Positions 17,601 through 50,742 of a stretch of 64,000 nucleotides of DNA are shown here, one piece after another. Where the stretch lies: contig NC_087388.1 in assembly GCF_963675165.1 (NCBI RefSeq), forward strand, positions 5,337,047 through 5,401,046, in the 5' to 3' direction. The stretch is from Halichondria panicea (Eukaryota; Porifera; Demospongiae; Suberitida; Halichondriidae). How positions within the stretch are numbered: position 1 is the first letter of the stretch; every line of letters begins with the position of its first letter. The position numbers and the translations under genes are program-made. Below the pieces are notes generated by a model. That model was not told the origin of the DNA. It did no database searches and saw nothing but the letters and a program-made list of their open reading frames with translations.

Positions 17601-20600
17601 CTCCCGTTGGCCATATATGGCATCACTATGGCAACACCTGGGCCAGCATCGAGACACACCCCAATCAGGGACATGACGTGAGGATGGTCAAAGTCCTGCA
17701 TCTTGTTCACCTCACACACCATGCTCTGAAAATCCGACAACGAGAACAGACCTGCAAGTAGACAAAATTAATGATGAACAGAGAATCATATATAACTAAT
17801 GCAATATTGTATTGCAGTTTACCAGAAATCTTATACAATCAGTGACTACAAATCTGCATTGTCTGAGAATCAAATCAATGAAAACCATGACCTCAATTAT
17901 TTGCGGTGAACAACATACATGTAATAAATAATATTACTTTTTAATGTTTTCACGGCCACCCCTTGTATAGGTACATTGTTCCAGTCTATCAGGACGCCCT
18001 TGTACACAATGCCAAATTCACCTGTAAAAATTATATTATAGTACACCATACATTAAGTGAAATACACATCTTTCTTTACCTTGTCCTATTGCAGTACTGG
18101 AGAGCTTCAATATTGAGGCTGGTATTTTGAATGAGTCTGGGATGGACTCAGCAATCTCATCGAGCTCTGATTCTGTAGGTCAGCAACAGAGACTATACAT
18201 ATACAGTCATGTAGATAAGAAAACTTACTAACAAGTGCAGTATTGCCATCCACTACCTCCTGAGTTTTTCTAACACTGTATAAAATAGAGCACTGATTCT
18301 GTATGTAAATACAAACCCTCGGTTAGGTTTAGTATAGTCTAGCTGGCAGGCATTTTTTCAGGGGTATCAATGAAGTAAAGGTATGAGATATATTCAAGAC
18401 TGCTGCTCTAACTTACTTTGCATGGACAGTCGAAAGCAACTAGTTAGAGATTTAGGCTCATTTTAAAAGTCAAAGGTGCAATCAATCAATTATCATTGAT
18501 CACGAACTTTGATCTTTGTTTTATCAGACTGCGTTTTATTACCGGAGACCTTCAAATCCTCTCTTAATGGATATCCAGTAATAATAAAGGTATGGTATAT
18601 AGGTGTAAAGATGCGATTCAAATGACCACACCTTTACAGTAGAGAAGTATTTACAGTACCAGAAGTAGGCAATGCTTTCGAGGTTCAAGTCAATCAGCAA
18701 AATTTATTACCTCGAAAATAACGATACAGTAATTGAACATGCAGTTAACAATGCCTACCTGGTAGCCACAAGCTGCACAATTTGTTCGTGCAAAGCAATG
18801 GACACTGACTTCCTCTGCCAGTTGCGATAGAAGCAGACGAATGTGATTATCATTACACACACGATCATCACAACCACCCCAAAAACACTCGGAATGATGA
18901 TTTCCAGAGGGACCATTGCCCCAGGAACCGCCACCACAGGATCTGTATAGTTCAGTCGCTGGTCCAATACGTGAGCAATGTTGATCCCAATGTTCACCTG
19001 AAGAGAGACAGTAAAATAGTTACAGTTTAATAGTCACTCACTTGTATGATGGCTGAGTTTACCCCTCCTGGGGGCTCTGAGGGAGCACTACAAATGACTT
19101 CGCTCCTTCTTGATTCACTGGGTGTTTCGGCACACTCCTCCCCTCCCACTGTCACTTGTATCTCACGGGTCTCCACTGAGTCGAGATTATCACCCTGCGT
19201 GGATATACTACACATGATAACAAATAGGGTCAGTGTACTAGCAATAAGACGTACCACAATGCGTATGAGGGTCGCTGTGCCACTGGTGACCTCTTGAGAA
19301 CCCTCCAGCCGGAAATTAGAGGGATTTGAAAAGACACTGATTGGGACGAGTGTTTGATTGGTGGGTGGGGCATCATCAAACAGCAGAGCATAGTCCAGTT
19401 GGGTCAGTGAGGTCGTCATTAGATTAGGAGTTGAGCATGTGATGGCGGTAGTGTTCACAACACTGCAGTTGCTCATCTATATATAGGAGGGGGAGAGTAC
19501 ATCATGTAATGCAGTTAGATTGTATATTATTGGAGAAAAGCCTCATTGGAAAATAAAAAGCTACAAAAATGGTCGTAGAACTATCTAACAGTGGTAATCC
19601 TGCAACACTGCAGTAGCTTCTCTGTAGGGGAGGGAGCATGCATCATGCAATAAGACATAAATTATAGCTACCAGAAGATCCCCCATTTTCTGGTAGACCT
19701 CCAACACAGGCCGTTGTACCACATCCAAGTACACTCCAGTGAAGGTCAGTGTGATACCTCCACTGGGAATGGTGTTGCTAGGAAACACGGCAGTTACATT
19801 GGGGTTGTTACGATAACTGAATACAACTCTTGGATTGCTGACTTTGGCAGCATCAATGGACACCACTACCGAAGCATTGGAGGTGAGGGGTCCTGCTGTG
19901 GTCCTGCAACGAATCTCATCAGATTGGATAGATCTGCATGGAAAGGTTTGAGTAATAATTATAGTTACTCAAAACAGTCACTCATAATTATTACATTATG
20001 TTGCAGACGTAGATTGACCCTTCATCCTCTAGAGAGACCCCAGTGTCGTTCTGATTACCCACATCCAGTGTCGTTCCCCTCACAGTCACTGTGGTTCCCC
20101 CGGCCATGGGTCCAAAGGTCGGAGTCATACTGTTGACAGTAGGATCTACCGCAGTGAAGGAGCCAGCGTTTACGATGGCCTCTCTAGAGCCAATAGTCAG
20201 AGAGAATTCTTTGGACCCTCCAGTTACAAAGTTGGTGGTTTCACAGACAAACTGACGCCCTGGTATGTAGCCAGTTTTAGTGGGAGTGCAGACCACATTT
20301 CCTAATGTAAGGATGGCGTTTTGAATGTGAACAAAGGTCACTCCGAGGTCAGTTCCCGTTACAGTGATTGTTGTACCACCTTCAACTGGTCCTGTGGGGT
20401 GAAGTATATAGTCATTCTGACATTGTCAGTATTAATTTTGCATCAGGCTCAACAATGATTACCAGACATTGGAGTGAATGAGTTGATAACAGGAGCAGGG
20501 CAACTGCCCCCTTCAGTAGTGAAACTATTGGAACACTCTTGCGTCACCTCACAGCTGTTCTCACACCACCCACATGTGAACTGTGACCCAATTCTGGACG

Positions 20601-21630
20601 CAAGGCACTCTGAACATCTACTAGCCATTTCACGACAATCATACAGTGTCACTGGGAGGGGGTATGACAGAGACTGTATAATTGTTTGTTCCAATGTGTA
20701 ATAGTTTGTGTATACGTACCATTGGTCTGTTGCATGATGCTGCTCAGTGGGTGGTTGATGTCATTCGCTGACCAGATTACCATGGCAATCACTGGGGAAC
20801 TGCTGATCCCAGCAAAAAGTGTGAACTGTACACAAAATCATAATACCTACTAAGTGTACGAATTGTAATGTGTAATGTGGCAATACTGTACAAACCACCT
20901 TTGTTGCAGATATGTGACATTTCAGTGACCATTCTTCAAGCAAGCTACCCCCCACACTGACAATTACCCTACGAAAGATCATTGTCAACACTTACTTGTC
21001 CACTGCCCACTGTACACAGGATGGAGCTCTCGTTCTCATACCGAGCTGTCAGACTAACTCCATTCACAACACAATAGTACTCAAAGCCATCCGTCTAATG
21101 AGAGGGAAGCCATGTAACAATCAGGTACAGAAATCATGCAACTAACGGGGGCGATGAGGTTCCTGGTGGTCAGTCGAAGGTCCTGGGCCACCCTTACTGG
21201 TTGAGTGTACCCACCAGAGGGGGGCGTGTCCAACAGAGGGCACTCGGCAGTGAAGTTATTGCCTCCAGACACCTGTACAGAGGATGTATAGCAATGGCGT
21301 ATATAGGAAGCAATTTCTCAATGGGGGGGCTCTAGTTTTTTGAATAAAAAAAGTACGGCTATCTACATTATAGTGCAGCTTGAAACTACTTAATATAGAG
21401 CCCCTGCATGGAGTCCCCCTTCCTACGCCATTGTATAGAGTCACAGCTAGGTCATCATAATCACTGACGGTTATCACCTGTAAGAAGTGAGATTCATTCC
21501 TGCAAGGAGCTGATGTTCCACTGCACTGCTTGTTGAGGTTACACCATCCACACAGACTGTTAAACCCAAGGCAGTCCTTACAGCTATAGAATGAGAAAGA
21601 AAGCAAAATGAAGTAGGTATATATACGCAC
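14640..21630 (-). CDS. RTK-B: 5'-truncated receptor tyrosine kinase lacking Sema and first PSI
   Basis: A paralogue of RTK-A/C/D that begins at the second PSI domain. Exons: 21583-21478 (or from an ATG at 21630), 21272-21147, 21094-20996, 20825-20720, 20651-20463, 20391-19995, 19933-19672, 19476-19255, 19194-19042, 18997-18759 (membrane helix), 18269-18229, 18172-18080, 18021-17938, 17751-17534, 17254-17142, 17011-16846, 16404-16262, 16036-15879, 15068-14955, 14746-14640 (TAA). All splice borders are GT-AG and no frame break is seen. The kinase is intact ([31 protein letters not shown]). No match to the five upstream exons is visible before 21583. An in-frame ATG at 21630 adds [16 protein letters not shown], which could act as a signal peptide; the model from there is about 1,060 residues. 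The C-tail has two related exons where C and D have one short exon. Confidence 0.75.
15487..15774. mobile_element. CAGGGGCGTAACTAG MITE in RTK-B intron 23, right end lost
   Basis: It starts CAGGGGCGTAACTAGCAATG and aligns with the complete copy at 26424-26723 up to GGGGCGCAAG, where it is cut off and joined to CTCTAAATAG. The missing right terminus shows that the deletion followed the segmental duplication. Confidence 0.65.
21292..21433. mobile_element. 142-bp MITE in an RTK-B intron
   Basis: The inverted ends are CAATGGCGTATATAGGAAG and CTTCCTACGCCATTG, flanked by TATAG on both sides (21287-21291, 21434-21438). It lies between the second PSI exon and the next exon. Related right ends (CTTCCTATACGCCACTG) occur at about 14126 and 25115. 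Confidence 0.75.
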
Positions 21631-26013: not shown

Positions 26014-26423
26014 CTACAGTAGAGGTAATGAAACATCAATCCAAGGAGTAGTTGACGGGAATCAAACAAAAATAGCGTATACATGCATGTAGCATGTTGC
26101 CAAGGTTAAATATTGTACATACATGGTCATTTACAAAAATAATAATACATACTATATTATATAGCTAGTGTTCAAGGTATGATGATTTAAATTTGTTTGA
26201 GCATACTAATCAATTATTCATGACATGCCAACAATTTGGCAATACAGCAATTTTCCAAGTACAAAGTGACACTACATGTACAACAATGAGTCTCAACGTA
26301 GGGAACATAACAATGTAATGTTGTTCATGATGTTGTGATTGACATAAGGCCACTCTCCCCTTCACTTGTTTTTGACCAATCCTAGTAATTTCAGTGGTGC
26401 AAGTTCACATCTTTTTTGTTCAG

Positions 26424-28379: not shown

Positions 28380-31300
28380 ATGTTATTGTCACTCTTATTT
28401 TTGTTTTTGCTGCAAAGAGCAGCTCATTCTCAATATTTCTCCTATGATTATGCTGAAACTGATACTCTCCCAGGACTGCAAGTGGACTCCACTGGGAGAA
28501 CATTCCTTGCTGCAGACAACTATCTGTATAGACTGAATGCTCAGCTAATACAAGAGGAGAGAGTTGATCTAGGAGATACTGTCATTACCGAAGGACTTTC
28601 CCTGAGCTCTACTGGGATGTTGGTGGTGTGTTTAAATGATCTCTCTTGCTCTGTCTACAATGCAAGTAACCTCATTGCTGGTCCTATCAGGAGTGTCAGT
28701 AATGCTATAGGAAGTTTGGATTTTGGAGTAGCTATCATTGCGTCAAGAGACACTTTCTACACTGGAGAAGACAATTATGGGATGGTACTGAAACAATTCG
28801 GAGAAGGTTTCAATAGATCGTCTGACAACAATCCATCAGGCGAACTCAATGAATTTGTTTTGGAAGATAGTGACTTTTCACGACAATTCTATGCATATGG
28901 TGGTTTTGTGAGTGGTGGATTTGCCTATTACGTTGTCGTCGACTTTCAACCTGTTAGTGCACTAGCTATAAGACTGTTACGTGTTTGCAACATGCCTGAT
29001 TGTGGAGGCCCAAGTACCTGTGGAGTGACTGCTTTGTATGAACTGGGAATCAATTGTGGCTTTCAAACGATCACTGAAGATACTTGTTTATGTGCAGTGT
29101 CACTAGCAGAGGACTTCAGTGGGATATCTGGACCCACTGCTGTTATAAATCTTTGCTACGGTGGTACTAACTCTATTTGTGTGGTCAATATCACTGCTGT
29201 CAATGAAGCTATGGACGCTAAATATGACTCTTGTATTGTGTCACGGACTGTTGGAGAAAAAGTTGGCTTACCATGGAGAACAGGCTCAGATAACTGCGAT
29301 ACTCTGCCTCAGCCTCAGGTTTGTATTGCCTATACTTGCATACTCCTATAACATAGAAATCACATAATATATTTTCCAGGAAACAAGGAACAGATGTGAC
29401 ACACCCAGTCCAGTCGGCCTTCTTATCCTAAATGGTGGTATTGACATAATAGCACCAGTTTGTATCAACTTTGGAAAGAGTTTTATCGCCATAGCTTCAG
29501 TAGCTGTGAAAGTGGAGCATTTTTCCTTTGTGTTTGTGGCAACTAATGAGCCCATTATAAGAGGAGTAAGTGCAGTTCTGTTGAGTCAGCTATATATTGT
29601 GTATAATCATGGTATTGTTTGTCATTGTCACAGTACGATGTCAGTGGTACATCGACTCTGGGCCCCGATAGTGCATTCTACAATCAGCAATTGGCCTCTA
29701 ATGTATTACATTTGTCATGGCACGAGGGTCTAAACTACATCACAGCAGCCTCTTGGAACTCTGTGAGTTAAAGTTTGCATGTATGTCCTACCCTATCCAT
29801 CTGCCTCCCCTCTGTCCTCTGCTAGGTGTTCCAAATACCGATTGAAGAGTGCTTCCAGCGTTTAGACTGTACTAGTTGTACCAGTGACCTCAACCCGCTG
29901 TGTGGGTGGTGTGTGGTGGAGAAAAAGTGCTCTCGTCAGACGCAGTGTCAGAACTCCAGTATTTCTAGTAGATGGACACAGGACAATGCCAACTGTTTTA
30001 CTGCTGCTACTGTGGAGCCTATGCAACTTGTGCTTGACCCTGAGATTCTTGCCACTGAGGTAAGACTTGTGTGTATATGTGTCTGATATCATATAAACGA
30101 CCCCCTCCCCCCCAGCTCACAGTGACCCTGACCTCTCCCGGCCTGCCTAACCTCCTTCCTGGAGAGAGCTTCTACTGTCATCTGGCGGACAGTGAAGGAC
30201 GTTTCCCACCCATCATAGTACCAGCTGTTGAGGTCACCCCAGGAACAGTGTTCAGTTGTGATATTGAAGGACTGGTACCTGACTACCCTGGAGTGACTGC
30301 AACCATCAACCTGGGCTTTCAAAACTCTCTGTTCAATGAGCCATTTGATATCACCAACCAAGCGCTTACCATCTACAGGTGCTCAGCAGGAGAAAGGTAT
30401 CCACATACATGCATGTATATTAAATACAAATTAGTTTTCTAGTATAATTATAAGCTCATAAATACAACTCCCACAAATAAATGATTGAAGATTATCACAA
30501 TATAAATTGTAGTTTGTCTGCAATGTGTAGCCATGCAGGCTGAGTTTTTGCTTTATAATTATCGGATGGAAAAATAACCTGGGACAATGCCAACCGTTTC
30601 ACAAATAACCTACACAGGCGTGTCTATATAGCGATATAGTAAACTGTGTAGTAAAACAAATGCATGTACACTAAAAACATTAAAAAGTGCGACAACTTAA
30701 TTAGTGTGCTCAACACACTTAAGAACATTGTCTATATAGAGAAAATACGATAATTATGTCTTTATGACACCGTTGTATACAGCTGTAAGAATTGTCTTGG
30801 GATAAATAATCCGTGTCGATGGTGTAACCTCAACAAGCAATGCAGTGGAACATCAGCTCCTTGCAAGAATGTATCTCACTTCCTACAGGTGAGCTCAGTG
30901 ACGTGATGATGACCTGTATATACGTCCCTCTGTACAGGTGTTTGCAGGCAACGACTTCACTGCCGAGTGCCCCTTGTTGGACACGCCCCCCTCTGGTGGG
31001 TACACTCAACCAGTAAGGGTGGCCCAGGACCTTCGACTGACCACCAGGAACCTCATCTCCCCTGTAAGTAACATGACCTGTATATCTGATTGTTCCATAG
31101 TTTCCCTCACCATATAGACAGATGGCTTTGAGTACTATTGTGTTGTGAATGGAGTTAGTCTGACAGCTCAGTATGAGAACGAGAGCTCCATCCTGTGTAC
31201 AGTGGGCAGTGGACAAGTGAGTATTTAGTGATTGTTTAGCTTATGTGACTGTGGAATGAAGAGGATCACTTGTACTGTTTGTCACATTAGATACTTAATA

Positions 31301-34300
31301 AGTTTGTGATGGTAGCTTATGTGATTGAATTATCCAGTGGAATGAAGAGGATCACTTGTACTGTTATAGTTACAATAAACACTTGCATGTATTACGTGCC
31401 TGATTAACATGTACATGAATGTTCCAAGTTCCGCTGTACATGGTTAATGCGCCTCGGCATGTTTTACTTCGCTCCAGAATGTTAGAGTGTATAGAATAGG
31501 ACATTAAATTAATGCATAGTTTTTTTAACGAAAGTGTTCCGCTATAGTAATATTCAAGAAATAAATAATATTAGAGCAAGAGTAATACAGTGTTATGGAA
31601 GAGGAGCTTAATGTAACAAGTCTCATTAAAATTAATGGCTGCTGCATGTTTTTGGTAAGAGAACAACAGCTAGAAAGAGCTACTAGTTTTTGTTGCATCG
31701 TTAAACAGTTACAGCTGGAACAGACACACATGTGCACACACACAGTCAGTATTCTTCGTGTGGCTACGCAGATTTTATAATGCACACAGTCATGTACTTG
31801 TAAACACATCCTGATTAAAATTAATAATAGCTACATACTGACGATTTGGTTTACAGCTCACACTTTCCCCTGGTGTTGGAAGTTTCCCTGTGGTTGTTAT
31901 GGTAACCTGGACGGGGAATGACATCAACCACACACTGAGCAACACCATGCAACAACTTTCAGGTATCATTATATGTATCTGTCAACCATAATTCTTTGGA
32001 TAATTTGGATAGACGCTTCCAGGTAGTCTAGACAATCTACTAGTTCACCCCGCACCCACACATATAGTGACGTTGTATGATTGTCGTGACTTGGCCAGTG
32101 GATATCTGGAATGTATTGCAGTCAGAATGGGGTCAGAGTTTGCATGTGGGTGGTGTGGGGGTAGTTGTGAGGTGATGCAAGAGTGCTCCAATACTTTCAT
32201 TACTGAGGGGGACAATCCTCCTGCCCCTGTCATCAACTCATTCACTCCAATGTCAGGTAAGAATGCAGTGAACGTATATACCTGCGTACATACAGTATGT
32301 GATTGTCATAATTATGTAGTGTAGTCAAAGATCTATCATACTTGCATTACTAAGCCTTTTTAACTTTAGTAGTAAGTATATGCATGCTTAACTCACTATT
32401 GATTACATACAAAATTTGTACATACTTAATCCTCAGGACCAGTTGAGGGTGGTACAGCAATCACTTTGAGGGGTACTGACTTCGGAAGAACTTTTGTTGA
32501 CGTTCAGAACTCCATCCTTACATTAGGAGGCGTGGCTTGCATTCCCCTCATCACTGGTTATATACCATGGCAACAGTTTGTCTGTGAGACTGCACATTTT
32601 TTAACAGAAGGGTCAAAAGACTTCTCTCTGACTATTGACTCTAGAGTAGCCGTTGTAATTGGTGGCTCCTTCACTGCGATAGATCCTACTGTCAGCAGTG
32701 TGACTCCCACCTTTGGACCCATGGCCGGGGGAACTAAAGTGGTTGTGAGGGGTACTGCACTGAACGTGGGTAACCAGGAGGACACTAGAGTCTTTCTAGA
32801 GGTCAGCGAGTCATACTACGTCTGCAAAATATTGTGAGTGATACTCTATAATTATAACAAAGCTCAAACTTTTTTCTGCAGATCTATCGAGTCTCAAGTG
32901 ATTTGTTGCAGTACCTCAGCAGCAAACCTCACCTCTACTGCTTTGGTGGTAGTGTCCATTGATGCTGCCAGAGTCAGCAATCCAGGAATGGTCTTCAGTT
33001 ATCGTAACAACCCTAATGTGACTGCTGTGTTTCCTAGCAACACCATTCCCAGTGGAGGCATCACACTGACCTTTACTGGACTGGACTTGGACGTAGTACA
33101 GCAGCATGTGTTGGAGGTATACCAGCCAATGGGGGATCCTCTGGTAAGCTGCCGTATATATATTCGATGGTCAAACTTTTTGATTGACATTTTTCAGAGA
33201 ACGATGCCCCACGTACTTGTGTCGAATATGTTGTGTCGTTATTGTGTCCCTCCCCTACAGAGGAGCAACTGCAGTGTTGTGGACAATACCACCATCACAT
33301 GCTTGACTCCTAGTCTGACAACAACCTCACTCACCCCATTGGACTATGCCCTATGGTTTGATGATGTCCCACTCATTACACAAGCACACTTCCTTATCAG
33401 CGTCCAACCAGATCCTTCTCAATTTAGACTAGATAGTTCTCAAGAGGTCACCAGTGGCACAGAGACGCTCATACGCATTGTGGTATGTATGATTAGCTAG
33501 TACACTGACTCTACTGTTATCGTGTGTGTATATCCATGCAGGGTGATAATGTTGACTCAGTAGAGACCAGTGAGATAAGAGTGATCGTGGGAGGCGAGGA
33601 GTGTACTACGACACCTAGTAGTTTAAGAGGAAACGAAATCATCTGTATCGCCCCCTTGGAGCTCCCGGGAGGGGAAAACTCAGCCATCATTCAAGTGAGT
33701 GACTATTAAACTGCATATTAGCTAAAATTATACTGTCCCTTCAGGTGAACGTTGGGAGCAACATCTCTCAAGTATTGGACCAGCAGCTGACTTACACAAG
33801 TCCTGTGACTGCTGCAGTTCCACTGGAGATCATCATCCCGAGTGTTTTGGGGGTTATTGTGATGATTGTGTGTGTAATGCTAATCATTTTTGTTCGTTTC
33901 TATCTGAACTCTCGGAAGAAGATCGTGTCAATTGCTGTGCATGAACAGATGATGGAAATCGTGGCTAATACGTAATAATTAGTGTGTAGTCCGTAGCTAG
34001 TCCGTATATAGCTGTTCAATTATCTTATTCATTTACAGGAGAACACGGGAGGACATATTTCCTATGGATGGCAATACAGCACTCATTAGTAAGTTAAGTT
34101 CTATATTATAGTTTGCACTGATAATTATATTCACTGACCCACAGAATCAGAACTTGTTGAGATTGCTGAGTCAATCCCAGACTCAATCAAAATTCCAGCC
34201 TCCATATTGAAGCTCTCCAGTACTGCAATTGGACAAGGTAAAGAAACATTAAAATAATTTACGGAGAGTGTAACTATATAATTATAATTATACAGGTGAA

Positions 34301-37300
34301 TTTGGCGTTGTGTACAAGGGAGTCCTGACAGACTGGAACAATGTACCTATTCAAGGGGTGGCCGTGAAGACACTGAAAGGTACGATTTCATATAGCTTGC
34401 TTAATTAATATACTGTTTTCAGCGACTAACTTTATGTTCTATACATGCATGCATGCATGGTTGTCATTCATGAATTTATTCTTTTCACTATTCTTATAAC
34501 AGATTACAATTTCTGCAATTATAACCTCAGTTCTTCTGCAGGTCTGTTCTCATTGTCGGATGTTCAGAGCATGGTGTGTGAGGTGAACAAGATGCAGGAC
34601 TTTGACCATCCTCACGTCATGTCCCTGATTGGGGTGTGTCTCGATGCTGGCCCCGGCATTGCCATAGTGATGCCATATATGGCAAACGGGAGTGTTATTG
34701 GATATCTCAAGAGAGAAAGGAGCAGCCTTGAGTTGGATGATGACTGTGAGATTGATCAGGTGTGTATATAGCTTAAAATCATGGCAGTATCTAGCCTTGT
34801 CTGCATGGGTGTCTCTGGAGAGATGTGAGTGCAATCAAGGGGCTGATTAGTGTGTGTATAGTTATAAGGGAGGACAAAGGTGCACACTATATATACACTC
34901 CCATCTTCTACCGTAGTCAGGATTATTTACTTCCAATTTACTCTTAAACGATTAATTTAACCAGCCTATAGTATTCAATTTGAGGATTATGGGGATATAG
35001 TCTCGTTATAGGAGAAGGTGGTGAGCTTTTTCAGAACACCAAAAATTGTGTGAGGAAGCTCTTGACATTTTCTACAGGTTCTGGAAGTGAGGAAACTGCT
35101 ACTAAAGATGTGCCATCAGATAGCACTGGGAATGGCCTACTTGGCCGAGCAGAACTTTGTCCATCGCGACCTTGCGGCCAGAAACTGCATGTGAGTGAAC
35201 TATCGACGACTGCATGTGTGTACAGAAAAACAAGAATTATAATTTGAAGACATATTAACTAGATCTAGCTGTTTAAGACATGAAAAGATTCCTTGTTTCT
35301 CATCAGCCACTTCCTCAATTTGCATGAGGGGAAGAGGCCAGAGGAGGATCGTCTCTGTCAAAAGGTCTTCCGAAGGACTTTAAAATTCCACTCAACTAGC
35401 TCCACGTGAATTGGACATACTATAAAGAAAGAGTAGATGAGTGGAATTCAATTTAAGTCCTCTGGAAGCAGCTATAATTGACCCTGACGATCCTCCATTG
35501 CTACGTATATCTATATAGTGTGATGTTCATCTTGTACATTCCTATAGGCTGGACTCGGGAGGAGGTATCAGGGTGGGGGACTTTGGTCTGGCTGAGGACG
35601 TCTATACTAGCGGCTACTTCAGACAGAACGACCGAGCGAATGTGAAGCTGCCCTACAAATGGATGGCCTTGGAGAGTCTCAACGATGCCATCTTCACAGA
35701 GAAAACTGATGTGGTCAGTCATGCAGTACAGCATACATGCATGGTATTAGCTTAAGGCAATAATTGTTGTTATAATTATGTTGTCCATGTGCCCAGTGGT
35801 CGTATGGTGTGACTATGTGGGAAGTCTTCAATGGAGGAAAGACCCCCTACCCTGCCGTGGACCCACACTCCCTCATCCAGCTGCTGGGAGAGGGGCGGAG
35901 ACTAGAAAAACCTCTCAATGCAGCCTGTGCCATTGAGATGTGAGTGTATACCTGAGTTCAGTAAAAATTTTCAGGGTGGTATACATAATATTATATTGTA
36001 TGGCAGTTTCAATGAGCTTTGTGTTCAAGCGAGCCCCTGTAAACAGGTCTTGTAATCCGGGTAGACTGAGGGGAGCTATAGGCCGCTGCATGTATGCCAT
36101 TTGATTATTACTCCGTGCATTCGCAACACGCAGCAGAGTTAGAGTGATTTGTGTGTGTGTGGACACAAAAATGAGCTGTTTGAGCAAACTAGACACTTTC
36201 ATGGACTGCTTAAGCCTTATATAAAACTGCTAATGAGACAGTAGTTGAAAAATAATACGCTATAGTTACAGTTGAATTGTAAGTGATCTTCGAAGACAAA
36301 AAAAAACACTAATCGTTGCTATAGATTCAGGATCATTTCCCGTAATCATAACGTTATAGTAAGGTCATTCGGTAAAAAATGATTGTATCTGTTTTGTTGC
36401 TGCATGGGGTGAATATGTTCTATATGAGAATCTTATACATGCAGTTCTAAGCTGATGCGTCAGTGTTGGAGGGAGGATCCAGAGGAGAGGCCAACCTTCT
36501 CACAACTGTCCTCCATTGTGGAGAGGCTACTGACATCCATTGCTGGCTACACTGAGCTCTGTATGGTGCTACTGAACCCAATTCAAGAAGCGGAGCAGCT
36601 CAGTAAGTGTATGAAAATTATAGATATATACCGGTTAGTAAGCCGGCGCATGCGCCTATAGCGAAAAGAGCAGGCCTCTATGCGCCTATTATCTGGATAT
36701 GCTTATAGAGATTAACCACGCCCATGACGTTTCAATAAAGCAAATCTCCATTAGATATAGCTCGATCGTTTGTCTCCAAGAGGTCTATAGTTATATCTGA
36801 CAGCAGTAACACAGCTACCGGTAGTTAACATCTATAAAGAAGTGTGGAGACCAGTTGTTGGGCAGATAACTTTGCAGAAAACCATGCGCCTTCTATCCAG
36901 GCTCTTAGTCTGCTAACCAGGCGCCTATTAGTTGATGTGCGCTTATCAACAAGATTATAAGGTAATAGTTAAAAATACTGTACCTTAGTATGGCTGCCCA
37001 CAAAGATCATCACAATTTTTGAATTTACTTAGTGTACCGTATAGCGGGTAATTTTCGGGGGACAAAATATTCGTATTGAGACATTTCGTGGGTAATATTT
37101 TCGTGGCTGGAGTTTGCAGTGCAGGTAAAGGTAAGCAATGTCGCTTCATTCGTAGGTAAAATATTCGTGGTTCAGTGTTAAACCATATTTTGCCCCACGG
37201 AAATTATCCTCTATACGATATAATTATGCTAAAACATGCATGTTGTTATAATTATATAGTTTAATCATTCTTACTGCCCATGCAGAATGTGACAATTTAC

Positions 37301-37359
37301 CCACACCCACTGAAGACGCTCATCGCTATGTCGATGGTCCACTAGATCACCCTCTATAG
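28380..37359 (+). CDS. RTK-C: complete plexin-ectodomain, MET-like receptor tyrosine kinase
   Basis: Twenty-four exons: 28380-29318, 29380-29565, 29634-29762, 29826-30059, 30116-30396, 30783-30888, 30938-31063, 31118-31216, 31857-31962, 32068-32256, 32437-32833, 32882-33143, 33261-33482, 33542-33694, 33745-33971, 34039-34088, 34145-34237, 34296-34379, 34542-34759, 35078-35190, 35548-35713, 35797-35939, 36445-36602, 37286-37359. The CDS is 4,755 nt, 1,584 residues. Domains: signal peptide 1-18; Sema-like propeller to about 420; PSI1 about 425-470; IPT-like 497-590; PSI2 about 590-625; IPT-like 626-735; PSI3 about 738-785; IPT/TIG repeats about 786-1150; membrane helix about 1171-1193; kinase about 1255-1535 (glycine loop 1265-1270, Lys1291, HRD 1396-1398, DFG 1416-1418, activation-loop Tyr1424 and Tyr1428). 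The kinase signatures ([28 protein letters not shown]) are closest in feel to MET/RON. The tail is short ([15 protein letters not shown]). The natural ligand is unknown; a semaphorin-like partner is only suggested by the Sema/plexin architecture. Confidence 0.88.
37035..37220. mobile_element. TATAGCGGGTAA-type MITE in last intron of RTK-C
   Basis: Left end TACCGTATAGCGGGTAATTT, right end TTATCCTCTATACGATA in inverted form, with internal AATATTCGTG motifs. The equivalent insertion is in RTK-D (50423-50628), so it predates the C/D duplication. Confidence 0.7.
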
Positions 37360-41075: not shown

Positions 41076-44000
41076 ATGTTATTGTCACTCTTATTTTTGT
41101 TTTTGCTGCAAAGAGCAGCTCATTCTCAATATTTCTCCTATGATTATGCTGAAACTTACCCGGACCCAGGACTGCAAGTGGACTCCACTGGGAGAACATT
41201 CCTTGCTGCAGACAACTACCTGTATAGACTGAATGCTCAGCTAATACAAGAGGAGAGAGTTGATCTAGGAGATACTGTCATTGACGAAGGACTTTCCCTG
41301 AGCTCTACTGGGATGTTGGTGGTGTGTTTAAATGATCTCTCTTGCTCTGTCTACAATGCAAGTAACCTCATTGCTGGTCCTATCAGGAGTGTCAGTAATG
41401 CTATAGGAAGTTTGGAAGTAGCTATCATTGCGTCAAGAGACACTTTCTACACTGGAGAATACAAATTGAATTATGGGATGGTACTGAAACAATTCGGAGA
41501 AGGTTTCAATAGATCGTCTGACAACAATCCATCAGGCGAACTCAATGAATTTGTTATAGAAGTTATTAACTTTTCACGAGACTTCTATGCATATGGTGGT
41601 TTTGTGAGTGGTGGATTTGCCTATTACGTTGTCGTCGACTCTGATCCTATTAGTGCACGAGCTATAAGACTGTTACGTATTTGCAACATGCCTGGTTGTG
41701 GAGGCCCAAGTACCTGTGGAGTGACTGCTTTGTATGAACTGGGAATCAATTGTGGCTTTTATACGATCAATGGAGAAACTCATGTGTGTGCAGTGTCATT
41801 AGTGGAGGACTTCAGTGGGATATCTGGACCCACTGCTGTTATAAATCTTTGCCACGGTGGTACTAACTCTATTTGTGTGGTCAATATCACTGCTGTCAAT
41901 GAAGCTATGGACGCTAAATATGACTCTTGTATTGTGTCACGGACTGTTGGAGAAAAAGTTGGCTTACCATGGAGAACAGGCTCAGATAACTGCGATACTC
42001 TGCCTCAGCCTCAGGTTTGTATTGCCTATACTTGCATACTCCTATAACATAGAAATCACATAATATATTTTCCAGGAAACAAGGAACAGATGTGACACAC
42101 CCAGTCCAGTCGGCCTTCTTATCCCAAATGGTGGTATTGACATAATAGCACCAGTTCGTATCGACTTTGGAGAGAGTTTTATCTCCATAGCTTCAGTAGC
42201 TGTGAAAGTGGAGCATTTTTCCTTTGTGTTTGTGGCAACTGATGAGCCCATTATAAGAGGAGTAAGTGCAGTTCTGTTGAGTCAGCTATATATTGTGTAT
42301 AATCATGGTATTGTTTGTCATTGTCACAGTACGATGTCAGTGGTACATCGACTCTGGGCCCCGATAGTGCATTCTACAATCAGCAATTGGCCTCTCGTGT
42401 ATTACATTTGTCATGGCACGAGGGTCTAAACTACATCACAGCAGCCACTAGAAACTCTGTGAGTTAAAGTTTGCATGTATGTCCTACCCTATCCATCTGC
42501 CTCCCCTCTGTCCTCTGTTAGGTGTTCCAAATACCGATTGAAGAGTGCTTCCAGCGTTTAGACTGTACTAGTTGTACCAGTGACCTCAACCCGCTGTGTG
42601 GGTGGTGTGTGGTGGAGAAAAAGTGCTCTCGTCAGACGCAGTGTCAGAACTCCAGTATTTCTAGTAGATGGACACAGGACAATGCCAACTGTTTTACTGC
42701 TGCTACTGTGGAGCCTATGCAACTTGTGCTTGACCCTGAGATTCTTGCCACTGAGGTAAGACTTGTGTGTATATAGTTGTGTCTGATATCATATAAACGA
42801 CCCCCCACAGCTCACAGTGACCCTGACCTCTCCCGGCCTGCCTAACCTCCTTCCTGGAGAGAGCTTCTACTGTCATCTGGCGGACAGTGAAGGACGTTTC
42901 CCACCCATCATAGTACCAGCTGTTGAGGTCACCCCAGGAACAGTGTTCAGTTGTGATATTGAAGGACTGGTACCTGACTACCCTGGAGTGACTGCAACCA
43001 TCAACCTGGGCTTTCAGAGCTCCCTGTTCAATGAGCCATTTGATATCACCAACCAAGCGCTTACCATCTACAGGTGCTCAGCAGGAGAAAGGTATCCACA
43101 TACATGTATATTAAATACAAATTAGTTTTCTAGTATAATTATAAGCTCATAAATACAACTCCCACAAATAAATGATTGAAGATTATCACAATATAAATTG
43201 TAGTTTGTCTGCAATGTGTAGCCAGGCTGAGTTTTCGCTTTATAATTATCGGATGGAAAAATAACCTGGGACAATGCCAACTGTTTCACAAATAACCTAC
43301 ACAGGCGTGTCTATATAGCGATATAGTAAACTGTGTAGTAAAACAAATGCATGTACACTAAAAACATTAAAAAGTGTGACAACTTAATTAGTGTGCTCAA
43401 CACATTTAAGAACATTGTCTATATAGAGAAAATACGATAATTATGTCTTTATGACACCGTTGTATACAGCTGTAAGAATTGTCTTGGGATAAATAATCCG
43501 TGTGGATGGTGTAACCTCAACAAGCAATGCAGTGGAACATCAGCTCCTTGCAGGAATGTATCTCACTTCCTACAGGTGAGCTCAGTGACATGATGATGAC
43601 CTGTATATACGTCCCTCTGTACAGGTGTTTGCAGGCAACGACTTCACTGCCGAGTGCCCCTTGTTGGACACGCCCCCCTCTGGTGGGTACACTCAACCAG
43701 TAAGGGTGGCCCAGGACCTTCGACTGACCACCAGGAACCTCATCTCCCCTGTAAGTAACATGACCTGTATCTGATTGTTCCATAGTTTCCCTCACCATAT
43801 AGACAGATGGCTTTGAGTACTATTGTGTTGTGAATGGAGTTAGTCTGACAGCTCAGTATGAGAACGAGAGCTCCATCCTGTGTACAGTGGGCAGTGGACA
43901 AGTGAGTATTTTATGTGATTGAATTATCCAGTGGAATGAAGAGGATCGCTTGTACTGTTAGTCACAATAAATACTTGCATGTATTACGTGCCTGACTAAC

Positions 44001-47000
44001 ATGTACACGAATGTTCCAAGTTCCACTGTACATGTGCTAATGCGCCTCGGCATGTTTTACTTCGCTCCAGAATGTTAGAGTGTATAGAATAGGACATTAG
44101 TTTGTAAAGTAATGCATATTTTTTTTAAATAAGTGTTCTATATAATAATATTCAAAAAACAAATTAGAGCAAGAGTATAATACAGTGTTATGAAAGAGGA
44201 GCTTAGTCTCATTGAATGGCTGCTGCATGTTTCTGACATCAAGCTAAGATAACAATGGCTAGAAGAAGCTATTAGTTTTTGTTGCATCGTTAAATAGTTA
44301 CAGCTGGAACAGACACAAACACAATCAGTATTAAATAATGCACACAGTCATGTACTTGTCCTAATTAAATAATAGCATGCAAGTATAATTGAATTAACAT
44401 ACTGAAAATTTGTAGTTCGGCACACTTTCTCCTGGTGTTGGAAGTTTCCTTGTGGTTGTTATGGTAACCTGGACGGGGAATGATATCAACCAAACACTGA
44501 GCAACACCATGTCAGGTATACCATTATAAAATTATCTGCCAACCATGAATAATGTGGATAGCTAGACGCTTCCAGATAGTCTAGACAATCTACTAGTTCA
44601 CCCCACACCCACACACACAGTGACGTTGTATGATTGTCGTGACTTGGCCAGTGGATATTTGGAATGTATTGCAGTCAGAATGGGGTCAGAGTTCGCATGT
44701 GGGTGGTGTGGAGGTAGTTGTGAGGTGAGGCAAGAGTGCTCCAATACTTTCATTACTGAGGCGGACAATCCTCCTGCCCCTGTCATCAACTCATTCACTC
44801 CAATGTCGGGTAAGAATGCAGTGAGCGTAATATACGTACCTATCATTATGCGTACATACAGCATGTGATTGTCATATGTATAGTGTATAGATCTATCATA
44901 CTTGCATTACTAAGCTTTTTCCTTCATGAGCTTAGTAGTAAGTATGTTTAACTCACTATTGATCGAGGACATACAAAATCATATACTCAATCCTCAGGAC
45001 CAGTTGAGGGTGGTACAGCAATCACTTTGAGGGGTACTGACTTCGGAGGAACTTTTGTCGACGTTCAGAACTCCATTCTTACATTAGGAGGCGTGGCTTG
45101 CACTCCCCTCATCACTGGTTACATACCATGGCACCAGTTTGTCTGTGAGACCACACATTTTTTAACAGAAGGGTCAAAAGACTTCTCTCTGACCATTGAC
45201 TCTAGAGTAGCATTTGTAAACGGTGGCTCCTTCACTACGGTGGATCCTACTGTCAGCAGTGTGTCTCCGACCTTTGGACCCATGGCCGGGGGAACTAAAG
45301 TAGTTGTGAGGGGGTCTGCACTGAACGTGGGTAACCAGGAGGACACTAGAGTCTCTCTAGAGGTCAGCGAGTCAAACTACGTCTGCAAAATATCGTGAGT
45401 GATACTCTATATAACACAAAGCTCAAACTTTTTTCTGCAGATCTATCGAGTCTCAAGAGATTTGTTGCAGTACCTCAGCAGCAAACCTCACCTCCACTGC
45501 TTTGGTGGTGGTTTCCATTGATGCTGCCAGAGTCAGCAATCCAGGAGTGGTCTTCAGTTATCGTAACAATCCTAATGTGACTGCTGTGTTTCCTAGCAAC
45601 ACCATTCCTAGTGGAGGCATCACACTGACCTTTACTGGACTGGACTTGGACGTAGTACAGCAGCATGTGTTGGAGGTATACCAGCCAATGGGGGATCCTC
45701 TGGTAAGCTGCCGTATATATATCAGTGGCGTGTACAATGGGGGGCTTTGGGGGCTTGAGCACCCCCCTGTCCTCCCAGACAACCATGAAACTAATCCTAT
45801 CACTCAGTAGCTAGCTAGCTAGCTAACTGTGCAGCTCTATCTCATTGACAACGATCAAGTCATGACCACGCCCAATTGAGCATGCGCAATCAGTATTGCC
45901 ATTTGTTATGTAATGCATAATAGCTGATCAAGATCCTCTGCACTCTCCCAGTCACCTCTTGCTCCACTGAGAGATACTGAGAAGCAATGACTAACACTAG
46001 AATGACTGGACATCCCCATTGCAGTGATTGACCATTTTGCTAGGATGTACCCCAGGAGAATAGTGCATGGAGATCCTACAAGATGACTGACACATAATTA
46101 TGTCTTATTATCACGCTATGCATGTATTAGATCCCATTTGAGTGTATTTAGCAGGAAACTATGAGCTATAGTACCGGTACTATAGATTGCTCTGGGCTAC
46201 AAACTGCAACATTATACATTGTATTGTCATTTACAAGAATATACACATGTAATAACATAAAAATTACTGTAGCTAGATGCTTTGTCTAGTATCATAGTAA
46301 CAGAACTAGAATAGAAGAGAGAAGCTTTAGAAGAGAATAGTAGGAGCCGCTCTTTTCTTTGGCAGTGTGCTGTACTTTTTTGCTGCAAGGCTGCATGGGG
46401 GAGGAGCTGGATGTATGAAAGATGCGCCGAAATAAATGCGGGGGCGTAAAATCGCGCTCGCTATGCGCACCCAATTTTTTCTGTACTCTTGAGCACCCTC
46501 CTGCTTCAATCTCTAGAAACGCCCCTGTATATAGCCGGTAATTTCGATGGTCAAACTTTTTGATTGACATTTTTACAGAGAACGACGCCCCACGTACTTG
46601 TGTCGAATATGTTGTGTCGTTATTGTGTCCCTCCCCTACAGAGGAGCAACTGCAGTGTTGTGGACAATACGACCATCATATGCTTGACTCCTAGTCTGAC
46701 AACAACCTCACTCACCCCATTGGACTATGCCCTACTGTTTGATGATGTCCCACTCATTACACAAGCACACCTCCTCATCAGTGTCCAATCAGATCCTTCT
46801 CAATTTAGACTAGATAGTTTTCAAGAGGTCACCAGTGGCACAGAGACGCTCATACGCATTGTGGTATGTATTATTAGCTAGTACACTGACTATACTGTTA
46901 TCGTGTGTGTATATATATCCATGCAGGGTGATAATCTTGACTCAGTAGAGACCAGTGAGATAAGAGTGATCGTGGGAGGGGAGGAGTGTACTACGACAAG

Positions 47001-50000
47001 TAGTTTAAGAGGAAACGAAATCATCTGTATCGCCCCCTTGGAGCCCCCGGGAGGAGAAAACTCAGCCATCATTCAAGTGAGTGACTATTAAACTGCATAT
47101 TAGCTATATATTGTGCCTTCAGGTGAACGTTGGGAGCAACATCTCTCAAGTATTGGACCAGCAACTGACTTACACAAGTCCTGTGGCTGCTGCAGTTCCA
47201 CTGGAGATCATCATCCCGAGTGTTTTGGGGGTTATTGTGATGATCGTGTGTGTAATGCTGACCATTTTTGTCTGTGTCTATCTGAACTCTCGGAGGAAGA
47301 CCGTGTCAATTGCTATGCATGAGCAGCAGATGATGGAAATCGTGGCTAATACGTAATAATTAGTGTGTAGTCCGTAGCTGTTCAATTATCTTATTCATTT
47401 ACAGGAGAACACAGGAGGACATATTTCCTATGGATGGCAATACAGCACTCATTAGTAAGTTAAGTTCTATATTATAGTTTGCACTGATAATTATATTCAC
47501 TGACCCACAGAATCAGAACTTGTTGAGATTGCTGAGTCCATCCCAGACTCAATCAAAATTCCAGCCTCCATATTGAAGCTCTCCAATACTGCAATTGGAC
47601 AAGGTAAAGAAAGATTAATAATTTACGGAGAGTGTAACTATAATTATAATTATACAGGTGAATTTGGCGTTGTGTACAAGGGAGTCCTGACAGACTGGAA
47701 CAATGTACCTATTCAAGGGGTGGCCGTGAAGACACTGAAAGGTACGATTTCATAGCTAGCTTAATTAATATACTGTTTTCAGCGACTAACTTTATGTACT
47801 ATACATGCATGCATGGTTGTCATTCATGAATTTATTCTTTTCACTATTATTATTATACTTATAAGAGATTACAATTTCTGCAATTATAACCTCAGTTCTT
47901 CTGCAGGTCTGTTCTCATTGTCGGATGTTCAGAGCATGGTGTGTGAGGTGAACAAGATGCAGGACTTTGACCATCCTCACGTCATGTCCCTGATTGGGGT
48001 GTGTCTCGATGCTGGCCCCGGCATTGCCATAGTGATGCCATATATGGCCAACGGGAGTGTTATTGGATATCTCAAGAGAGAAAGGAGCAGCCTTGAGTTG
48101 GATGATGACTGTGAGATTGATCAGGTGTGTATAGCTTAAAATCATGGCAGTATCTAGCCTTGTCTGCATGGGTGTCTCTGCAGAGATGTGAGTGCAATCA
48201 AGGGGCTGATTAGTGTGTGTGTAGTTATAAGGGAGGACAAAGGTGCACACTATATATACACTCCCATCTTCTACCGTAGTCAGGATTATTTACCTCCAAT
48301 TTACTCTTAAACGGTTAATTTAACCAGCTTAAAAAAAGAGTATTCAATTTGAGGATTATGGAGATAGTCTCATTATATTATATTATTGATATTTTCTACA
48401 GATTTTGGAAGTGAGGAAACTGCTACTAAAGATGTGCCATCAGATAGCACTGGGAATGGCCTACTTGGCCGAGCAGAACTTTGTCCATCGCGACCTTGCG
48501 GCCAGAAACTGCATGTGAGTGAACTATCGATGACTGCATGTGTGTACAGAGAAACAAGAATTATAATTTGAAGATATATTAACTAGATCTAGCTGTTTAG
48601 GACATGAAAAGATTCCTTGTTTCTCATCAGCCATTTCCTCAATTTGCATGAGGGGAAGAGGCCAGAGGAGGATCGTCTCTGTCAAAAGGTCTTCCGAAGG
48701 ACTTTAAAATTCCACTCAACTAGCTCCACGTGAATTGGACATACTATAAAGAAAAAGTAGATGAGTGGAATTCAATTTAAGTCCTCTGGAAGCACTGGCT
48801 ATAACTGACCCTGACGATCCTCCATTGCTACGTATATCTATATACTTAGTTAATGTTGTACATTCCTATAGGCTGGACTCGGGAGGAGGTATCAGGGTGG
48901 GGGACTTTGGTCTGGCTGAGGACGTCTATGCTAGCGGCTACTTCAGACAGAACGACCGAGCCAATGTGAAGCTGCCCTACAAATGGATGGCCTTGGAGAG
49001 TCTCAACGATGCCATCTTCACAGAGAAAACTGATGTGGTCAGTCATGCAGTACAGCATACATGCATGGTATTAGCCTAAGGCAATAATTGTTGTTATAAT
49101 TATGTTGTTCATGTGCCCAGTGGTCATATGGTGTGACTGTGTGGGAGGTCTTCAATGGAGGAAAGACTCCCTACCCTGCCGTGGACCCACACTCCCTCAT
49201 CCAGCTGCTGGGAGAGGGGCAGAGACTAAAGAGACCTCTCAATGCAGCCTGTGCCATTGAGATGTGAGTGTATACCGGCCTGAGTTCAGTAAAAATTTCC
49301 AGGGTGGTATACATGATATTATATTGTATGGCAGTTTCAATGAGCTTTGTGTTCAAGCGAGCTCCTGTAAACAGGTCTGGTAATCTGGGTATACTGAGGG
49401 GAGCTATGGGCCACTGCATGTATGCCATTTGATTATTACTCCGTGCATTCGCAACACGCAGGAGAGTTAGAGTGATTAGTGTGTGTGTGGACACAAAAAT
49501 GAGCTGTTTGAGCAAACTAGACACTTTCATGGACTGCTTAAGCCTTATATATAACTGCTAATGAGACAGTATAGTTGAAAAATAATACGCTAGTTACAGT
49601 TGAATTGTAAGTGATCTTCGAAGACAAAAAAAAACACTAATCGTTGCTATAGATTCACGATCATTTCCCGTAATCATAACGTTATAGTAAGGTCATTCGA
49701 TAAAAAGTGATTGTATCTGTTTTACCGCTGCAATGAAGCTCAGCGCTGCACGGGGTGAATATGTTCTATATGAGAATCTTACACATGCAGTTCTAAACTG
49801 ATGCGTCAGTGTTGGAGGGAGGATCCAGAGGAGAGGCCAACCTTCTCACAACTGTCCTCCATTGTGGAGAGGCTACTGACATCCATTGCTGGCTACACTG
49901 AGCTCGGTATGGTGCTACTGAACCCAATTCAAGAAGCAGAGCAGCTCAGTAAGTGTATGAAAATTATAGACATACCGGTTAGTAAGCCGGCGCGCATGTG

Positions 50001-50742
50001 CCTATAGTGAAAAGAGCAGGCCTCTATGCGCCTATTATCCACATGCGCTTATAGAGATTAACCACGCCCGTGATGTTTCAATAAAGCAAATCTCCATTAT
50101 ATATAGCTAGCTCGATCGTTTATCTGCAAGGGGTCTATAGTTATATCTGACAGCAGTAACACAACTATTGGTATAGTGAAAGATACTTAACATCTATAAA
50201 GAAGTGTGCCTGGAGACCAGTTGTTGGGCAGATAACTTTGCGAAAACCATGCAGCATGCATGGGCCTTCTATCCAGGATCTTAGTCTACTAACCAGGCGC
50301 CTCTATTAGTTGATGTGCGCTTATTAACCAGATTATAAGGTAATAGCTAAAAAGATTGTACCTTAGTATGGCTATTAATGCCCACAAAGATCATCACAAT
50401 TTTTGAACACGTATACTTAGTGTACCGTATAGCGGGTAATTTTCGGGGGACAAAATATTCGTATTGAGACATTTTGTGGGTAATATTTTCGTGGCTGGAG
50501 CTTGCACTGCATGCAGGTAAAGGTAAGCAATGTCGCTTCATTCGTGGGTAAAATATTCGTGGTCCAGTGTTAAACCACGAAAACCATAAATATTTTGCAC
50601 CACAAAAATTACCCTCTATATACGGTATAATTATGCTATATAGCTTAATCATTCTTACTGCCATGCAGATTGTGATAATTTACCCACACCCACTGAAGAC
50701 GCTCATCGCTATGTAGATGGTCGACTAGATCACCCTCTATAG
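41076..50742 (+). CDS. RTK-D: complete tandem copy of RTK-C
   Basis: Exons: 41076-42014, 42076-42261, 42330-42458, 42522-42755, 42811-43091, 43470-43575, 43625-43750, 43803-43901, 44416-44515, 44621-44809, 44998-45394, 45441-45702, 46642-46863, 46927-47076, 47123-47352, 47405-47454, 47511-47603, 47658-47741, 47907-48124, 48402-48514, 48872-49037, 49121-49263, 49791-49948, 50669-50742. The CDS is 4,749 nt, 1,582 residues. Domain order and catalytic residues are as in RTK-C. The two differ by small in-frame indels (exons 1, 9, 14 and 15) and by scattered substitutions, most visibly in the Sema-like exon (for example [10 protein letters not shown] against [10 protein letters not shown]). Introns are also nearly identical, so the duplication is recent. 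Intron 12 carries an 805-bp insertion absent from RTK-C. The cytoplasmic tail is one short exon ending RLDHPL. Confidence 0.88.
45723..46527. mobile_element. 805-bp DNA element in intron 12 of RTK-D only
   Basis: It begins CAGTGGCGTGTACAATGGGG and ends AGAAACGCCCCTG, with the subterminal blocks GGGGGCTTGAGCACCCCCCT and GAGCACCCTCCTGC. TATATA flanks both sides. Intron 12 of RTK-C reads straight through the same flanks (117 nt). CAG...CTG ends suggest a hAT-type non-autonomous element. No coding region. Confidence 0.8.
50423..50628. mobile_element. TATAGCGGGTAA-type MITE in last intron of RTK-D
   Basis: TACCGTATAGCGGGTAATTT at the left, AATTACCCTCTATATACGGT at the right in inverted form. It retains both ends better than the orthologous insertion in RTK-C. 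Confidence 0.7.

What the first reader, a model, noticed from the sequence alone, without database searches (positions are those of the whole stretch)
28380..37359. Plexin-type ectodomain joined to a MET-like tyrosine kinase
The extracellular order in RTK-A, C and D is Sema-like, PSI, IPT-like, PSI, IPT-like, PSI, then several IPT. Alternation of three PSI domains with IPT domains is the plexin plan; known MET/RON receptors have one PSI. The cytoplasmic part is a tyrosine kinase with MET/RON-like signatures, not a plexin GAP domain. These genes therefore look like a link, by descent or by fusion, between plexins and MET receptors, in an early-branching animal.
Basis: partly seen in the sequence, partly recalled or inferred. 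Interest (0 to 1): 0.85.

Follow-up and report, generated by a model that had tools for sequence, protein, structure and literature searches.

The report
Sponge plexin-ectodomain receptor tyrosine kinases
A sponge carries a tandem family of cell-surface receptors whose outer part is that of a plexin and whose inner part is a MET/AXL-type tyrosine kinase; in sponges these outer parts look shared between kinase-tailed genes and ordinary plexins, so this is most likely a sponge-made fusion and not the ancestor of the human MET receptor.

Summary
Observation confirmed. The gene at 28380-37359 (+) reads as 24 GT-AG exons in one frame, 1584 aa; an NCBI model from the sponge Halichondria panicea (1505 aa) is an exact substring. 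Order: Sema (divergent), three PSI alternating with IPT, further IPT, TM, tyrosine kinase. The ectodomain matches plexin-A1 collinearly (E 1e-52); Sema holds by profile comparison, though Pfam misses it.

Interpretation half right: a plexin-kinase fusion, but not a link to MET by descent. Ectodomains of these RTKs lie inside sponge plexins, sorted by species, not by tail; one clade of sponge RTKs is rejected (p 7e-31). The kinase is of MET/TAM type; which is closer is unresolved. Ephydatia muelleri has the same architecture with another junction, inside the plexin juxtamembrane segment, favouring a separate fusion. There, RTKs and GAP plexins have nearly the same PSI-IPT parts, and Sema types cross the tail boundary (gene models, partly run-on).

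Precedent: Met-LP receptors of molluscs, annelids and echinoderms (PMC6374515), not reported there for sponges. New variant of a known kind.

The parts
28380..37359 (+). plexin-ectodomain receptor tyrosine kinase gene, 24 exons, 1584 aa (first and last base of coding sequence)
   Evidence: splice sites, frame; exon 10 corrected to 32068; NCBI P0001 is an exact substring
28380..29762 (+). exons 1-3: signal-peptide-like N-terminus (by eye) and divergent Sema domain
   Evidence: C-terminal part; profile-profile; weak
29826..30059 (+). exon 4: PSI 1 and start of IPT 1
   Evidence: (PSI, residues 427-475)
30116..30888 (+). exons 5-6: IPT 1 and PSI 2
   Evidence: collinear with plexin-A1; 3 PSI stretches
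30938..31962 (+). exons 7-9: IPT 2
32068..32256 (+). exon 10: PSI 3 and start of IPT 3
32437..33828 (+). exons 11-15 (part): IPT 3 to IPT 6 and membrane-near stretch
   Evidence: (TIG, 4 stretches)
33829..33894 (+). transmembrane segment in exon 15
   Evidence: most hydrophobic 20 residues; residues 1172-1193 printed
33895..34221 (+). juxtamembrane segment (exons 15-17)
34222..36514 (+). tyrosine kinase domain, exons 17-23
   Evidence: (residues 1277-1546 of the 1599-aa model)
41076..50742 (+). second copy, 24 of 24 exons located, 93-100% identical exon by exon except exon 9 (82%)
1..7983 (-). third copy, 20 exons located, cut by the window edge
14995..21583 (-). fourth copy, 19 of 24 exons located; exons 1-5 (Sema, PSI 1, IPT 1) not found

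Best explanation
A lineage-specific family of receptor tyrosine kinases, made in sponges by joining the ectodomain of a plexin to the kinase cassette of a sponge MET/TAM-type receptor, and then amplified in tandem. Shown by sequence: architecture, intact catalytic motifs, 33 kinase-exon copies on one contig, two GAP-plexin sites on the same contig, ectodomain kinship with sponge plexins, kinase kinship with a sponge MET/TAM-type clade. Inferred: the plexin ectodomain binds a semaphorin or another surface ligand and dimerises; the kinase domains phosphorylate each other and tail tyrosines, while a true plexin with a similar ectodomain answers through its Rap-GAP. The same kind of binding head is thus read out in two ways. 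Ectodomains are kept alike and reassorted between kinase-tailed and GAP-tailed genes by recombination or gene conversion (pattern seen in Ephydatia gene models; the mechanism is inferred).
For: Ectodomain tree, 36 rows of my choice, 737 columns: 9 Halichondria RTK rows plus Halichondria plexin P0008 form one group 100/100; 3 Ephydatia RTKs plus 5 Ephydatia GAP plexins another, 100/100; P0008 groups with RTKs P0005-P0007 (100/99; exact place 67/26). One clade of all 12 sponge RTKs rejected, p 7e-31. Identity of the window gene and P0008 falls from 51-82% per 100 residues in the ectodomain to 13-27% after the membrane. Kinase tree, 53 rows: Halichondria plexin-type kinases lie in one group with Halichondria kinases of sushi, SRCR and FN3 type (100/99), Ephydatia ones with other Ephydatia ones (100/99); one clade of the 6 plexin-type kinases rejected, p 2e-6. 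Juxtamembrane: Ephydatia RTKs share ...EECKR with Ephydatia plexins and then part; an HMM of plexin juxtamembrane segments (61 plexins, or 9 sponge ones; Ephydatia plexins included in both) finds it in 5 of 5 Ephydatia RTKs, E 3e-24 to 6e-16. In the second Halichondria plexin an intron lies within a residue or two of that point (read by eye). Array: 33 copies of exon 19 on C12 at 4.55-5.57 Mb, of 79 matches in the genome; GAP matches at two C12 sites only, 6.48 and 6.73 Mb. Ephydatia matrices, 10 of 18 proteins on hand: kinases 94-100% alike, PSI-IPT 79-97% alike across both tail types, two Sema types (58-65% alike) each found on RTK and on GAP-plexin models.
Against: Within each species one RTK clade for the PSI-IPT part is not rejected (Ephydatia p 0.071, Halichondria p 0.083), so repeated exchange rests mainly on the Sema part in Ephydatia. 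The ten Ephydatia proteins come from two annotation sets of one species, so some are the same gene (P0125 and P0126 are identical in the parts compared); Sema type I on an RTK is seen in one model only (P0127), which has a long unrelated C-terminal piece; P0124-P0126 carry a trailing SRCR piece. Juxtamembrane contrast is not perfectly clean: with the wide HMM two Halichondria RTKs (P0004 10.2 bits, P0003 6.7) beat the best of 1000 shuffles (5.1), though not unrelated Amphimedon RTKs (P0131 13.0), and not the best shuffle with the sponge HMM (7.6). Echinoderm Met-LP kinases group with the sponge side (89/89). Two fusions versus one old fusion is not decided; MET versus TAM is unresolved. No ligand, expression or activity data.
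Confidence: 0.7

Rival explanations
1. One plexin-kinase fusion in a common ancestor of Halichondria and Ephydatia, followed by gene conversion between RTK and plexin ectodomains in each lineage and by loss of the plexin ectodomain in some kinases.
For: Both sponges have the architecture, and in the kinase tree the Ephydatia and Halichondria groups are neighbours (88/97). In both, RTKs and GAP plexins share a contig: C12 in Halichondria, and in Ephydatia P0123, P0126, P0218, P0220 and P0222 all list a contig of 7,175,088 bases. Conversion is made likely. Two Halichondria juxtamembrane segments score slightly above shuffles with the wide plexin HMM.
Against: A clade of the plexin-type RTK kinases is rejected (p 2e-6), also with the partly plexin-derived ones added (p 5e-4). 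Ephydatia clearly keeps the plexin juxtamembrane segment, Halichondria does not. Parsimony: two gains against one gain and two losses.
Confidence: 0.25
2. The sponge genes are orthologues of bilaterian MET/Met-LP, so that the plexin-MET fusion predates the sponge-bilaterian split.
For: In the kinase search, after sponge sequences many of the listed hits are MET/RON receptors (38-47% identical, 120 of 5233 listed). Echinoderm Met-LP kinases lie on the sponge side of the tree (89/89, unstarred). Same plan as Met-LP.
Against: Ectodomains group with sponge plexins, not with MET or Met-LP; a clade with MET and Met-LP is rejected, p 3e-45. Sponge kinases of the same clade carry SRCR, ADAM, Ig, sushi and FN3 ectodomains. 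PMC6374515 infers MET in the bilaterian ancestor and two separate Met-LP origins.
Confidence: 0.08
3. Artefact: ectodomain and kinase exons are neighbouring genes joined by the model.
For: The model is from genomic sequence; no transcript was available here.
Against: All 23 introns of the model are GT-AG with phases that fit; an NCBI model is identical over 1505 aa; P0001-P0007 list kinase, TIG and PSI in Halichondria, and P0123, P0126, P0127 in Ephydatia; the copies in the window keep the same exon order as far as they go.
Confidence: 0.03

Closest known systems
Met-LP receptor tyrosine kinases (Lophotrochozoa, Echinodermata; PMC6374515)
   Same: Complete plexin ectodomain and a tyrosine kinase of the MET group, explained in the paper by kinase acquisition in a plexin; in the starfish a Met-LP gene lies next to a plexin gene according to the paper.
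   Different: Sponge ectodomain groups with sponge plexins, kinase with a sponge MET/TAM-type clade, so most likely an independent fusion, with the reservation that echinoderm Met-LP kinases fall near the sponge ones (89/89). Tens of tandem kinase-exon copies, and ectodomains shared with GAP plexins.
Plexin (GAP type), Halichondria P0008
   Same: Ectodomain 61% identical over 1242 alignment positions.
   Different: P0008 has Plexin_cytopl GAP (516 bits) and Plexin_RBD; here a tyrosine kinase.
MET/RON
   Same: Sema-PSI-IPT ectodomain with a tyrosine kinase of the same broad group.
   Different: MET has one PSI and four IPT (PMC6374515); here three PSI alternate with IPT; ectodomain not in the MET group.
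Sponge RTKs with SRCR, sushi, ADAM, Ig or FN3 ectodomains (Amphimedon, Halichondria)
   Same: Same kinase clade, 23 rows, 100/99.
   Different: Other ectodomains (Pfam lists).

Membership tests
Plexin | Sema followed by three PSI-IPT pairs and further IPT domains | tested here: met
   Sema not by Pfam
Plexin | cytoplasmic Ras/Rap-GAP domain (PF08337) | tested here: not met
   kinase, no PF08337; in the genome PF08337 matches only at C12 6.48 and 6.73 Mb
MET/RON | kinase inside the MET clade | tested here: inconclusive
   MET+TAM+sponge clade 100/98; MET side 89/57; sponge+TAM not rejected p 0.22
MET/RON | truncated ectodomain with one PSI | tested here: not met
   three PSI stretches
Met-LP (as an architecture) | complete plexin ectodomain plus intracellular tyrosine kinase | tested here: met
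Met-LP (as one line of descent with the bilaterian ones) | ectodomain clade with bilaterian Met-LP | tested here: not met
   the published Met-LPs are themselves polyphyletic (PMC6374515, section 11). By kinase alone echinoderm Met-LP lies near the sponge clade (89/89)
Receptor tyrosine kinase | active kinase, ligand-induced phosphorylation | not testable with these tools
   motifs intact in the sequence only

The most novel reading that the evidence does not exclude
A paired-receptor system in sponges: one pool of plexin-type binding heads is exchanged by recombination between an amplified set of kinase-tailed receptors and a few GAP-tailed plexins, so that the same ligand can give opposite signals, as with paired activating and inhibitory immune receptors of vertebrates (comparison recalled, from no call). 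Semaphorins, allorecognition or microbial cues are candidate inputs; an H. panicea transcriptome study reports a plexin-group gene and a Sema-domain gene induced 6 h after LPS (PMC8242945, passages seen).
Probability: 0.3. Interest if true: 0.82.

Novelty: new variant of a known kind. Interest (0 to 1): 0.6.

Why it matters
It places plexin-kinase fusions in two sponges, where the 2019 survey reported none (for Amphimedon it described six plexins, four with short intracellular parts). Together with MET, mollusc Met-LP and echinoderm Met-LP it suggests that plexin ectodomains were coupled to kinases of the MET/TAM group several times, which makes it testable why this pair of parts recurs. The sharing of ectodomains between two output types offers a natural experiment on how one binding head is wired to two signals.

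Tried and rejected
Halichondria juxtamembrane as a plexin relic: 'HEQMMEI' resembles plexin 'QMELLEIEM', but of the 9 Halichondria rows scored only P0004 and P0003 beat the shuffles with the wide HMM, none with the sponge HMM, and unrelated Amphimedon RTKs scored as high; dropped. Link by descent to MET: rejected for the ectodomain. Pfam Sema: no match in the gene; genome-wide 4 matches, none on C12, one beside a PSI match on C15 that looks like a semaphorin. Structure of the Sema part: low confidence, weak support only. Exon structure of plexin P0008 around the membrane: half of the stretch reads N, so the second plexin was read instead. Top PDB row for the kinase is an EGFR chain whose 300 bits sum two stretches of 148; set aside as a double count.

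Rows left out. Ectodomain tree: P0228, P0219, P0227, P0097 dropped as fragmentary or odd; P0122, P0124, P0125 and P0224 not entered. Sema tree: P0224 and P0227 dropped by length; several kept rows are truncated; 10 of 18 Ephydatia proteins used. Kinase tree: 48 proteins of my choice plus the window gene and 4 human kinases; P0024 and P0157 (Branchiostoma, annotated FGFR-like, and with integrin domains) fell in or by the MET group although meant as outgroups. Only 120 of 5233 kinase hits were listed, so absence of plexin-type RTKs from Amphimedon or other sponges is not shown. AU tests assume groups named beforehand; mine were named after seeing the trees.

Literature: search listings showed no report of plexin-type RTKs in sponges (one open-access library only); passages of PMC8662651, PMC8242945 and PMC9798719 seen, with no such report in them.

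Change on checking: the grouping of echinoderm Met-LP kinases with the sponge side had been left out of my draft; adding it, I lowered the best explanation from 0.72 to 0.70 and raised the MET-orthologue rival from 0.06 to 0.08.

Full report
What is there. The window is G000:C12:5337047-5401046 of a 131-Mb genome; NCBI proteins of the demosponge Halichondria panicea match it, on a contig of 6,759,720 bases, the length of C12. The gene at 28380-37359 (+) has 24 exons with GT-AG introns and one open frame. With exon 10 starting at 32068 it encodes 1584 aa, and NCBI's P0001 is an exact substring of 1505 aa. P0002-P0007 are paralogues of the same plan (71-81% identical). In the window, exons were located by blastn in three more copies: 24 of 24 at 41076-50742 (+), 20 up to the window edge from 7983 (-), and 19, without exons 1-5, at 21583-14995 (-).

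Domains. Pfam lists a tyrosine kinase, four TIG and three PSI stretches, and no Sema. Plexin-A1 aligns collinearly at E 1e-52. Sema was tested by profile comparison: score 149 against plexins, 142 against MET, 13-18 for reversed or permuted controls. Foldseek on a low-confidence model lists plexin entries first, then MET and semaphorins.

Kinase. Against PDB the top row is an EGFR chain with two stretches of 148 bits; the best single-stretch hits are MER (216-222 bits), AXL (212), MET (211), RET (208) and RON (206). In the large protein set, after sponge sequences and multi-kinase proteins, many of the listed hits are MET/RON receptors (120 of 5233 listed). The tree of 53 kinases puts a sponge clade (23 rows, one of them from a metagenome, 100/99) with MET and AXL/MER (100/98), away from INSR, RET, ROS, ALK, DDR, EPH, ERBB and CSF1R. 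The MET side as against TAM has 89/57, and sponge+TAM is not rejected (p 0.22). Echinoderm Met-LP kinases fall on the sponge side (89/89, unstarred), although one clade of MET, Met-LP and the two lancelet rows is not rejected (p 0.11). 'MET/TAM-type' is therefore the safe name. In the sponge clade the same kinase carries SRCR, ADAM, Ig, sushi, FN3 or plexin ectodomains (Pfam lists).

Ectodomain. The tree of 36 ectodomains (PSI 1 to the last IPT) puts all sponge RTK and sponge plexin rows in one clade (100/100), sorted by species and not by tail. The Halichondria GAP plexin P0008 groups with RTKs P0005-P0007; it lies on the same contig at 6.73 Mb, with a second, divergent GAP plexin at 6.48 Mb. 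One clade of the 12 sponge RTKs is rejected (p 7e-31); within species one RTK clade is not (p 0.071 and 0.083).

Ephydatia. This freshwater sponge has plexin-type RTK models (P0123, P0126, P0127 and shorter ones) and GAP plexins; P0123, P0126, P0218, P0220 and P0222 list a contig of the same length. RTK and plexin are alike through the membrane and the juxtamembrane ...EECKR and then part. An HMM of plexin juxtamembrane segments, built with Ephydatia plexins among others, finds it in 5 of 5 Ephydatia RTKs (E 3e-24 to 6e-16). Halichondria RTKs score near shuffles; P0004 (10.2 bits) and P0003 (6.7) exceed the best shuffle (5.1) with the wide HMM but not with the sponge HMM, and unrelated RTKs score as high. 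In the second Halichondria plexin an intron lies within a residue or two of this point (by eye). The Ephydatia fusion thus looks like an exon-boundary join made in a plexin, with a junction other than that of Halichondria.

Exchange. Among ten Ephydatia proteins (two annotation sets, so fewer genes; P0125 and P0126 look like one), kinases are 94-100% alike and PSI-IPT parts 79-97% alike whichever tail they carry, while GAP tails are 58-100% alike. Two Sema types occur: one on RTK P0127 and plexins P0218 and P0222 (87-91%), one on RTKs P0123, P0125, P0126 and plexins P0219-P0221 (74-100%); between types 58-65%; plexin P0225 belongs to neither (54-64% to all). The Sema tree agrees (97/90 and 100/99). 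RTKs P0126 and P0127 share 94% in the tail but 58% in Sema. The second type on both tails is seen in both annotation sets; the first type on an RTK rests on one model with a run-on C-terminus. Segmental exchange or conversion between kinase and GAP genes is the simplest reading; annotation chimeras remain possible.

Scale. Exon 19 of the kinase has 79 matches in the genome, 33 of them on C12 between 4.55 and 5.57 Mb at 88-100% identity, 7 on C2, C4 and C5 at 86-92%, and 39 at 76% or less; two pairs on C12 lie under 3 kb apart, so genes may be fewer than 33. IPT exon 11 has 39 matches, 33 on C12 including the GAP plexin and a 44-residue fragment. GAP domains are found at two places only.

Mechanism, inferred. 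A plexin head that binds a semaphorin or another ligand, dimerises and lets the kinase act in trans; the true plexin reads the same kind of head through its GAP. Semaphorin-like genes exist in the genome (4 Sema matches, one next to a PSI). In H. panicea a plexin-group gene and a Sema-domain gene rose 6 h after LPS (PMC8242945, passages), and a gene called plexin-D1 was raised in regenerating explants (PMC9798719, passages); whether any of them belongs to this family is unknown.

Comparison. PMC6374515 (abstract, passages, sections 12 and 13, part 1 of 2 of section 11) defines Met-LP, finds it in Lophotrochozoa and Echinodermata, infers two separate origins there and one MET origin in the lineage to Bilateria, and reports for Amphimedon six plexins, four of them with short intracellular parts. 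The present genes fit the Met-LP architecture but not its lines of descent by ectodomain. Searches listed in Tried and rejected found no report for sponges.

Verdict. Observation confirmed; the fusion is most likely real and sponge-made; descent from or to MET is not supported. The most interesting point is the sharing of ectodomains between kinase and GAP tails.

Noticed in passing
G000:C12:4553352-5574244: 33 kinase-exon copies of this family in roughly 1 Mb, two of them identical in protein sequence to the window gene's exon 19: a recently active tandem array.
   Followed up: partly
window 14571-15559 and 25513-26496: A direct repeat pair (261 nt at 92%, 300 nt at 97%) about 10.94 kb apart; the second holds tail-like exons (NSVYGLREEN) with no kinase match of P0002, P0003 or P0007 beside it, perhaps a relic of another copy.
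   Followed up: partly
window 13235-13486 and 24322-24482: Tandem 42-nt units at two places about 11 kb apart.
   Followed up: no
window 38269-38658 (-): 129-aa open frame that looks like the C-terminal part of a retroelement reverse transcriptase (judged by eye only).
   Followed up: no
P0009-P0011 (perhaps the C2, C4 and C5 copies): Halichondria RTKs that keep IPT 2 to IPT 6 and TM, with the kinase whole (P0009, P0010) or cut short (P0011), but have sushi, SRCR or Calx-beta-type N-termini in place of Sema-PSI 1.
   Followed up: partly
P0024, P0157 (Branchiostoma): Kinases that fall in or beside the MET group (unstarred) although one protein is annotated FGFR-like with Ig domains and one has integrin domains; MET-type kinases may have changed ectodomains in lancelets too.
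   Followed up: no
P0132 (Amphimedon): ADAM metalloprotease-disintegrin ectodomain joined to a kinase of the same sponge clade.
   Followed up: no
P0150 (metagenome protein): Kinase that groups with echinoderm Met-LP kinases (97/88); origin unknown.
   Followed up: no
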